Assembly: GCA_016208495.1 (NCBI GenBank)
Contig: JACQXX010000019.1
Location: 1-64,000 of the forward strand
Source: Acidobacteriota bacterium
GTDB taxonomy: Bacteria > Acidobacteriota > Blastocatellia > Chloracidobacteriales > Chloracidobacteriaceae
Length of the DNA: 64,000 nt
Reading direction: 5' to 3'
This document shows, piece by piece, positions 48,367 through 50,221 of this stretch (positions are counted from its first letter, which is position 1; every line of letters begins with the position of its first letter). The translations under genes and the position numbers were made by a program. The notes beneath the pieces were generated by a model. It was not told the origin of the DNA and did not search any database. It saw only the letters and a program-made list of their open reading frames with translations.

Positions 48367-49805
48367 TTACTTCCCACGTTTTAACTGTTCGTTTTGCCGT
48401 TTGAGATTTTCCAATGTTTCCTGGATTGAAGGAACATTCAGTTGGGCTCGTTCCTGGTCAGTTACAGCCTTTTGGTCAAAGGGTTCAACCGTCCACTGAT
48501 TGTTTTCCATTTTTGACTGGGTACCGTAAATTTGAGGCTTCCCAACCGACCATAAATAGCGATCCCAGGTCGCGGCTGAAAGCCATTTGGCCTGCTCGAC
48601 GTTTGGATCCAGTTCAAGTGCTTTTTTGCAGAACTGATGAGCCATCAAATAATCTTCGGATTTCAAGCTATGTTGGAAAATCATGGCGGCATGATAATAA
48701 TCGTGTCCTGTTTTCAGACGACCTGCTTTGATGAATTGCTTGACTTTGGCGCGTCGTTGCTCATCGTGCCTGGATACCACCTTCCAATTTATTTCTTCCG
48801 GGATCCGTTCAGCCTGGTCTTCTTTGTACATTGTAAACAATTCAGGATCATAGAGATGAGCATTCTTTTTCAGCATCTCGTCCCAGTTCTTTTTCAACCG
48901 CTTCTCCAGTTTTGACCATTCCTTTGATTGTCGTAATCGGGTTAAATCTGGATCGAAGCGTGCGTGCGGCCAGCTTGAGTACCCTTTATCCAGAGCTTTT
49001 GAAAGTGCGGCCAGAGCTTTGGACCTTTGGTTCAGAAGTTCATAGTCGCAGGCCAGATCATAGTTCATGATGGCATCATCTTCGCCGCGTTTTGTGGCCT
49101 CGTGAATATAAGCGATTGCCTCTTGATAATTTTTAGATTTGTAAGCCTGGCGACTAAAATAAAAGAGTAATCCTGATTCCTCTGCCGTCCGCCAATTTCC
49201 CTCATCGTTTCTGAACCAGTCTCGTCCCCCCTGCTCAGTGATGCAAAGGACTTCGGTGCGATCTGGAGTTGTCCAAAAAGTACCATTGGCTAAGTCTTTC
49301 ATATGTTGAAGGGCAGTTTCTTTTCTTTGATCAATCTTGCCCAATTTAGCAGTAAGCAGTTTTTCAAGCTCTTTTGGATCTGTTTCTGGCTTAATTCCTA
49401 AGGCCAATAAATTTGACCGCAAAAATCGGCTGGTAAAATATGATAAATAGTGCTCGCCTACTTTGCCTGCATTTAACAACGAGGATTGGTGCGCTAAAAA
49501 GGCTTTAATTTCAGTAATTTGCTGATCTGACGCAGAGAGCAGCCCTGGAAGCGGAGGCTGTTGCGGGGTGACGGCAGATTGGGTTAACTGGCTGGCATAA
49601 GTTTTCTTACTTATGGAACTGCTCCAGGTATAAAATCCTAAGTACCTTACCGAAAATTTCCAGACATTTTAACCACGAAACACACGAACGACACGAAAAG
49701 AATCAAACACTTACCCAATCCAATATCTCAGGAAACTTATGACAAGGTACTTATAAGCAGTAGGATCATTAATGTAAATTGTTTGAGCATTAGTTGCTTT
49801 TTCAT
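48367..49805 (-). pseudogene. TPR-containing exported protein gene split by an RE element
   Basis: The 3-prime part (48367-49640) encodes about 420 residues with a TPR-like region (YKSKNYQEAIAYIHEATKRG, EDYLMAHQFCKKALELDPNV). It has no usable ATG; the open frame runs back into RE2. Beyond RE2, ATG 49805 begins MKKQLMLKQFTLMILLLI, a signal/anchor peptide, and stops inside RE2. Removing 49641-49753 (element plus one TA) joins ...LLLI to GFYTWSSSISK... in frame, giving one continuous protein of about 441 residues. GGGG lies 7 nt before ATG 49805. As it stands, only a truncated protein from an internal TTG (49479) could be made. The family is not recognised beyond TPR-like helices. Confidence 0.82.
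49641..49751 (-). mobile_element. RE element copy 2 (111-bp TA-flanked MITE) inside a gene
   Basis: Begins AGTACCTTACCGAAAATTTC and ends GAAACTTATGACAAGGTACT, an imperfect inverted repeat of about 21 bp, with TA target duplications at 49639-49640 and 49752-49753. It breaks the gene annotated at 48367-49805. Confidence 0.88.
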
Positions 49806-50221
49806 AAGTATCCCCATTGTACCAGGATAAAACCTCAGAAGGCTGAAACACATTTGTGCATGATTGGAAGTCAATTAAGTACCTTACCGAAAATTTCCAG
49901 ACATTTTAACCACGGAAAACACGGAAAAAAATCAAGCACTTCCCAAATCCAATATCTCAGGAAACTTATGACACGGTACTTACAACATCAGTTCCTTGAA
50001 TGAATCAACCCATTTCGCTCTCGTTGATTCCAAACAAAGGTTTTTTGCAACCAGGAAGCCCTGCCACGCCGAATTGCTGGCCCAAAATGGACTGTACTGG
50101 AATCTCTGGACCTCATCCAGCACGATGGATTTTGAGAATTAGGGTTCCGGGTTCCAGGGTTTCGAATTTTTGTCCTTTTTGTTTTTTCGAAAACCCGGAA
50201 GCGCGGAACCCGGAAGCTCGC
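49806..50221. other. Intergenic region with RE3 and heptamers
   Basis: 49806-49877 is upstream of the broken gene and should hold its promoter. RE3 follows (49878-49980). 50139-50218 carries GGGTTCC/AGGGTTT units, TTTCGAA, a TTTTTGTCC tract, GAAAACCCGGAA and CGGAACCCGGAA up to the stop at 50222. No gene seen. Confidence 0.6.
49878..49980 (+). mobile_element. RE element copy 3 (103-bp TA-flanked MITE)
   Basis: Begins AGTACCTTACCGAAAATTTC and ends GAAACTTATGACACGGTACT, flanked by TA (49876-49877 and 49981-49982). It is very close to RE2 in sequence, lying 126 bp away, which suggests local hopping. Confidence 0.85.

What the first reader, a model, noticed from the sequence alone, without database searches (positions are those of the whole stretch)
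49639..49805. A MITE insertion breaks a gene and can be excised in silico to restore the frame
Deleting 49641-49753 (RE2 plus one TA) on the minus strand joins MKKQLMLKQFTLMILLLI to GFYTWSSSISKK with no frameshift, giving a signal peptide and a ribosome site to an otherwise start-less gene. This proves the boundaries and TA target of the RE family and the recency of the insertion.
Basis: seen in the sequence. Interest (0 to 1): 0.75.

Follow-up and report, generated by a model that had tools for sequence, protein, structure and literature searches.

The report
TA-targeting MITE breaking a secreted-protein gene
A 111-base parasitic DNA element, one of about a hundred closely similar copies in this bacterium, has jumped into the start of a gene for an exported protein and cut off its start codon and export signal; it is a clear but ordinary case of gene breakage by a MITE (a small mobile element with no genes of its own).

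Summary
At 49641-49751 lies a 111-bp MITE flanked by TA on both sides. Deleting 113 bp (unit plus one TA) opens a 441-codon minus-strand frame; deleting 111 or 115 bp does not. The joined N-terminus has an SD-like GGGG, an ATG and a signal peptide. A start this gene-like occurs in about 0.2-0.4% of random joins from the same genome, and a 408-aa paralogue (42% identical) starts the same way.

The family is real: 98 paired copies, 90 of them 111-112 bp, TA on the left of 96 and on the right of 93. The ends are absent from 161 other genomes of the class. Other copies interrupt recognisable genes; in three, the same excision rule makes or completes a Pfam domain across the junction.

'Proves' is too strong for one site: boundaries and TA duplication rest on the family. 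Recency is supported (1 difference in 111 from two copies elsewhere) but not dated. No close relative with the empty site was found, and no transposase with matching ends. An IS630/Tc1-mariner-type enzyme acting in trans is the likeliest mover. MITE-made pseudogenes are well documented: a new member of a known kind, of low interest.

The parts
49639..49640 (.). TA, one copy of the target-site duplication
   Evidence: TA at this position in 96 of 98 copies
49641..49751 (+). MITE, 111 bp, no coding capacity; ends AGTACCTTACCG and GACAAGGTACT
   Evidence: 1 difference from copies L002 and L003 at other places
49641..49670 (+). left terminal inverted repeat (imperfect)
   Evidence: 32-nt arms with the TA, 75% complementary
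49722..49751 (-). right terminal inverted repeat (imperfect)
   Evidence: one strand folds at -28.9 kcal/mol, z -4.1
49671..49699 (+). interior tract AACCACGAAACACACGAACGACACGAAAA, about three degenerate CACGAA units; similar tracts occur in other genomes of the class without these ends
49752..49753 (.). TA, second copy of the target-site duplication
   Evidence: TA at this position in 93 of 98 copies
49754..49805 (-). severed 5' end of the gene: ATG at 49805-49803, MKKQLMLKQFTLMILLLI (last codon shared with the TA)
49812..49815 (-). SD-like GGGG, six bases before the ATG
48367..49638 (-). remaining 423 codons of the gene plus stop (TPR motifs, weak DUF6624 match), frame open, without ATG/GTG/TTG until 49479
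49878..49980 (+). second, older copy of the same family (103 bp, another subfamily, internal deletion), flanked by TA (49876-49877 and 49981-49982), about 70 bp upstream of the start codon
   Evidence: nearest copy 10 differences away

Best explanation
A non-autonomous MITE of a lineage-specific family inserted at a TA within codons 18-19 of a gene for an exported TPR/DUF6624-like protein, duplicated the TA, and split the signal-peptide start from the body of the gene. Shown: the element's boundaries, TA on both sides, about a hundred related copies, restoration of the frame by deleting unit plus TA but not unit alone or unit plus both TAs, and a paralogue with the same N-terminal architecture. 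Inferred: that an IS630/Tc1-mariner-type transposase moved it in trans, that the insertion is young, and that the gene is now a pseudogene or at best makes a truncated, unexported protein.
For: TA-flanked units of 111-112 bp in 90 of 98 copies. 105 left-end and 108 right-end hits in the genome, with backwards-pattern controls of 0 and 2. Only the 113-bp deletion, of 111, 113 and 115, opens the frame. Signal-peptide start present in about 0.2-0.4% of random joins. The 408-aa paralogue L093:2965-4191(-) is 42% identical over 284 residues and begins MKLKFLFSMLICVFCLTMPVLA; the 303-aa homologue in the family genome G001 also begins with a hydrophobic signal-like stretch. The same excision rule creates or completes domains in three other interrupted genes: TPR_10 across the junction 46.5 bits (the 31-aa piece before the junction scores nothing), PPC 25.1 to 31.5 bits, Y1_Tnp 76.2 to 88.4 bits with the profile now covered to its end. 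The copy differs by 1 of 111 from two copies elsewhere.
Against: No genome with the empty site of this gene was found. No transposase gene was found between these ends in the assembly. The paralogue aligns poorly over the first ~130 residues, so it supports the architecture, not the letters. Long spanning frames also arise at wrong deletion lengths.
Confidence: 0.93

Rival explanations
1. The gene never extended upstream: it begins downstream of the element and the joined signal peptide is a coincidence of frame.
For: No orthologue with the empty site is at hand; long spanning frames by themselves are common whatever length is deleted.
Against: A start with K/R, hydrophobic core and SD-like motif in the joined frame occurs in about 0.2-0.4% of random joins. 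The paralogue and the G001 homologue begin with signal-like stretches. The first ATG/GTG/TTG after the element is a TTG 53 codons in.
Confidence: 0.04
2. The gene is split by the MITE but still has a use: a truncated or unexported form is made from an internal start such as TTG 49479, or the element is at times excised precisely, restoring the gene in part of the population.
For: The 423-codon remainder has no stops; other copies are nearly or fully identical, so the family may still be active.
Against: The export signal is lost in every reading of the present sequence. Precise excision of this family was not observed, no matching transposase was found, and Tc1/mariner-type excision is often imprecise (general knowledge of the superfamily). 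An open frame is also what a recent insertion predicts.
Confidence: 0.08
3. The repeats are not transposable elements but a REP/ERIC-like extragenic palindrome or another structural repeat.
For: Hairpin-forming, short, and mostly not within long frames.
Against: TA flanks in 93-96 of 98 copies with unrelated sequence beyond; several copies lie within genes and domains are rebuilt by excision; subfamilies contain identical copies at unrelated places.
Confidence: 0.02

Closest known systems
MITEs that split ORFs in Anabaena sp. 90 (147 MITEs, 15 within disrupted ORFs; PMC3542288, passages read)
   Same: Many short copies, most between genes, some in ORFs making pseudogenes; no IS with matching ends in the genome (called type II there).
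   Different: Another organism; the sequences were not compared. The family here is not found outside its own genome.
Chunjie of Geobacter uraniireducens, MITEAba12 and other gene-inactivating bacterial MITEs (review PMC10969869, passages read)
   Same: Short, terminal inverted repeats, many copies, insertional inactivation of genes.
   Different: Sequences were not compared directly; sizes differ (Chunjie 178-235 bp, 38 copies).
IS630/Tc1-mariner elements such as ISY100 (PMC2170065, passages read)
   Same: Insertion almost exclusively at TA with duplication of TA; imperfect terminal inverted repeats (24 bp in ISY100).
   Different: The present element carries no transposase, and no IS630 copy with its ends was found.
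Minisatellite-bearing MITE of Porphyromonas gingivalis (PMC4596501, title and abstract only)
   Same: A short tandem tract inside a MITE.
   Different: Here only about three degenerate units; unrelated host.

Membership tests
MITE (non-autonomous DNA transposon) | Short (under about 600 bp), no coding capacity | tested here: met
   90 of 98 copies are 111-112 bp
MITE (non-autonomous DNA transposon) | Terminal inverted repeats | tested here: met
   32-nt arms including the TA, 75% complementary, outermost ten bases perfect
MITE (non-autonomous DNA transposon) | Many dispersed copies with sharp, shared ends | tested here: met
   105 left and 108 right ends; ends conserved, flanks near random
MITE (non-autonomous DNA transposon) | Target-site duplication | tested here: met
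   TA left 96/98, right 93/98; frame and domain restoration with unit + 2
IS630/Tc1-mariner-mobilised MITE | TA target and TA duplication | tested here: met
IS630/Tc1-mariner-mobilised MITE | Autonomous relative with the same ends in the genome | tested here: inconclusive
   IS630-type transposases at C85 and, truncated by a contig end, C61, without these ends around them; the assembly has 177 contigs and may miss a multicopy IS
IS630/Tc1-mariner-mobilised MITE | Transposase acts on these ends | not testable with these tools
   needs a transposition assay
Recent insertion into this gene | Orthologue with the empty site | tested here: inconclusive
   no relative of the same genus held; 21-base junction absent from genome contigs

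The most novel reading that the evidence does not exclude
The family is still active and its insertions come and go precisely, so that this and other secreted-protein genes (a second insertion sits in an apparent signal peptide of another gene, L024) are switched on and off in the population by a transposase of a kind not recognised here.
Probability: 0.04. Interest if true: 0.5.

Novelty: new member of a known kind. Interest (0 to 1): 0.17.

Why it matters
It defines the exact ends and target of an apparently undescribed, lineage-specific MITE family and warns that gene calls in this genome will miss or truncate the genes it splits. It adds an example of genome-shaping by very short elements, but no new principle.

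Tried and rejected
Empty-site search for this gene in genome contigs (nothing, uninformative without a close relative). Search for an autonomous partner through DDE_3, IS630, DDE_Tnp_1 and DDE_Tnp_1_2 families: no transposase found between these ends. The transposase gene at C23 (resembling ISAzo13) is next to a copy but has its own ends (GGGAGTCGGAAG), so it is not the partner. Longer 'elements' of 240-517 bp are copies that hold unrelated inserted DNA, not coding relatives. Counting long spanning frames as proof of the boundary was tried and dropped, because wrong deletion lengths do as well. In-genome sites used as unfilled stand-ins were mostly too diverged or tandem-repeated to be clean. 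A first Pfam call failed on a wrong frame.

Full report
Observation. The stretch 49639-49753 reads TA-[111 bp]-TA. The unit, 49641-49751, has imperfect terminal inverted repeats and no coding capacity, and one strand folds far better than its shuffles (z -4.1). Removing the unit plus one TA (113 bp) joins the upstream ATG frame to the downstream frame for 441 codons; removing 111 or 115 bp gives a stop at codon 19 or 28.

Is the joined start real? The joined N-terminus has an SD-like GGGG, ATG, two lysines and a hydrophobic core that reaches the junction. In 20,000 random joins from the same genome such a start occurs in 0.36% of cases, or 0.22% with an SD-like motif; the criteria were set after seeing the case, so this is a rough guide. 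A paralogue on contig C109, 42% identical over 284 residues and 408 aa long, begins with a signal peptide at the matching place, and the shorter homologue in another genome of the family also begins with a signal-like stretch. The first 130 or so residues of the paralogue align poorly, so it supports the architecture only. The protein has TPR motifs and a weak match to DUF6624.

The family. The genome holds 105 places matching the left end and 108 matching the right end within 3 mismatches; the backwards control patterns gave 0 and 2. In the fetched loci 98 copies have both ends, 90 of them 111 or 112 bp; TA flanks 96 on the left and 93 on the right, and beyond it the sequence is near random, with a mild symmetric preference (T at -5, A at +5, A at -8, T at +8). 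The ends occur in none of 161 other genomes of the class and in only two unrelated contigs of genome contigs, about what chance gives by my estimate. The interior CACGAA tract, in contrast, matches short stretches in other genomes of the class, which make up most of the 14 genomes with a match.

Independent evidence for boundary and target. One site cannot tell a TA duplication from other two-base bookkeeping, and long spanning frames are no proof: deletions of the wrong length give as many. But copies in other genes can be read by domain. Excising unit plus TA creates a TPR_10 repeat across the junction in an NB-ARC/TPR gene (46.5 bits; the 31-aa piece before the junction scores nothing), raises a PPC domain from 25.1 to 31.5 bits, over its cut-off, and completes an IS200-like transposase domain from 76.2 to 88.4 bits, now covering the profile to its end. 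Another copy sits in a second apparent signal peptide (L024) and one in a PD40 beta-propeller gene (L017).

Age. The gene-breaking copy differs at 1 of 111 positions from two copies at other places; 32 of 94 aligned copies have an identical twin, which points to recent amplification. The second copy in the window (49878-49980) belongs to another subfamily, has an internal deletion and is at least 10 changes from any other copy, so it looks older and is a separate event. No absolute date can be given.

Mechanism. TA duplication and terminal inverted repeats are the signature of IS630/Tc1-mariner transposition, shown in vitro for ISY100 (PMC2170065). The genome has one near-complete IS630-type gene (C85) and one truncated at a contig end (C61), neither bounded by these ends; a DDE_Tnp_1 search gave two others without these ends nearby and DDE_Tnp_1_2 none. 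Since the assembly is in 177 contigs, a multicopy partner could be missing. The mover is therefore inferred. What follows for the gene is also inferred: without ATG, ribosome site and signal peptide on the same frame as the body, it is most likely a pseudogene.

Comparison and verdict. Bacterial MITEs that inactivate genes are well known (review PMC10969869); in Anabaena sp. 90, 15 of 147 MITEs lie in disrupted ORFs and no IS there shares their ends (PMC3542288), a close parallel. The finding is correct, slightly overclaimed, and ordinary.

Noticed in passing
L102:2493, L115, L020:1502, L017, L024:1502 (all in the window's genome): Other copies of the same family interrupt an NB-ARC/TPR gene, a PPC-domain gene, an IS200-like transposase gene, a PD40 beta-propeller gene and another apparent signal-peptide gene.
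   Followed up: partly
window 49671-49699 and loci of other genomes listed: The interior CCACGAAnnACACGAAnnACACGAA tract also occurs, without these MITE ends, in other genomes of the class; its origin and role are unexplained.
   Followed up: partly
L095:386-905, L082:3022-3320, L079:2725-3050, L085:2956-3200: Copies of 240-517 bp contain unrelated inserted or captured DNA, some with its own inverted repeats, so other repeats seem to have nested in the element.
   Followed up: partly
L075:455-2010: A transposase gene resembling ISAzo13, with ends GGGAGTCGGAAGAAAATA, sits directly at the end of a MITE copy; another copy (L046) abuts a similar end.
   Followed up: no
L094:3026-3254; L004; L005: Pairs of copies lie within about 100-250 bp of each other, as in the window (49641 and 49878), in direct or opposite orientation.
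   Followed up: no
L085:1150-1304, L076, L084, L088, L099: 7-bp tandem arrays (GTGGTTA) and a dispersed intergenic repeat (CCATTTTGGAATGAAG...GACTACAAACTGGTA) are common near insertion sites.
   Followed up: no
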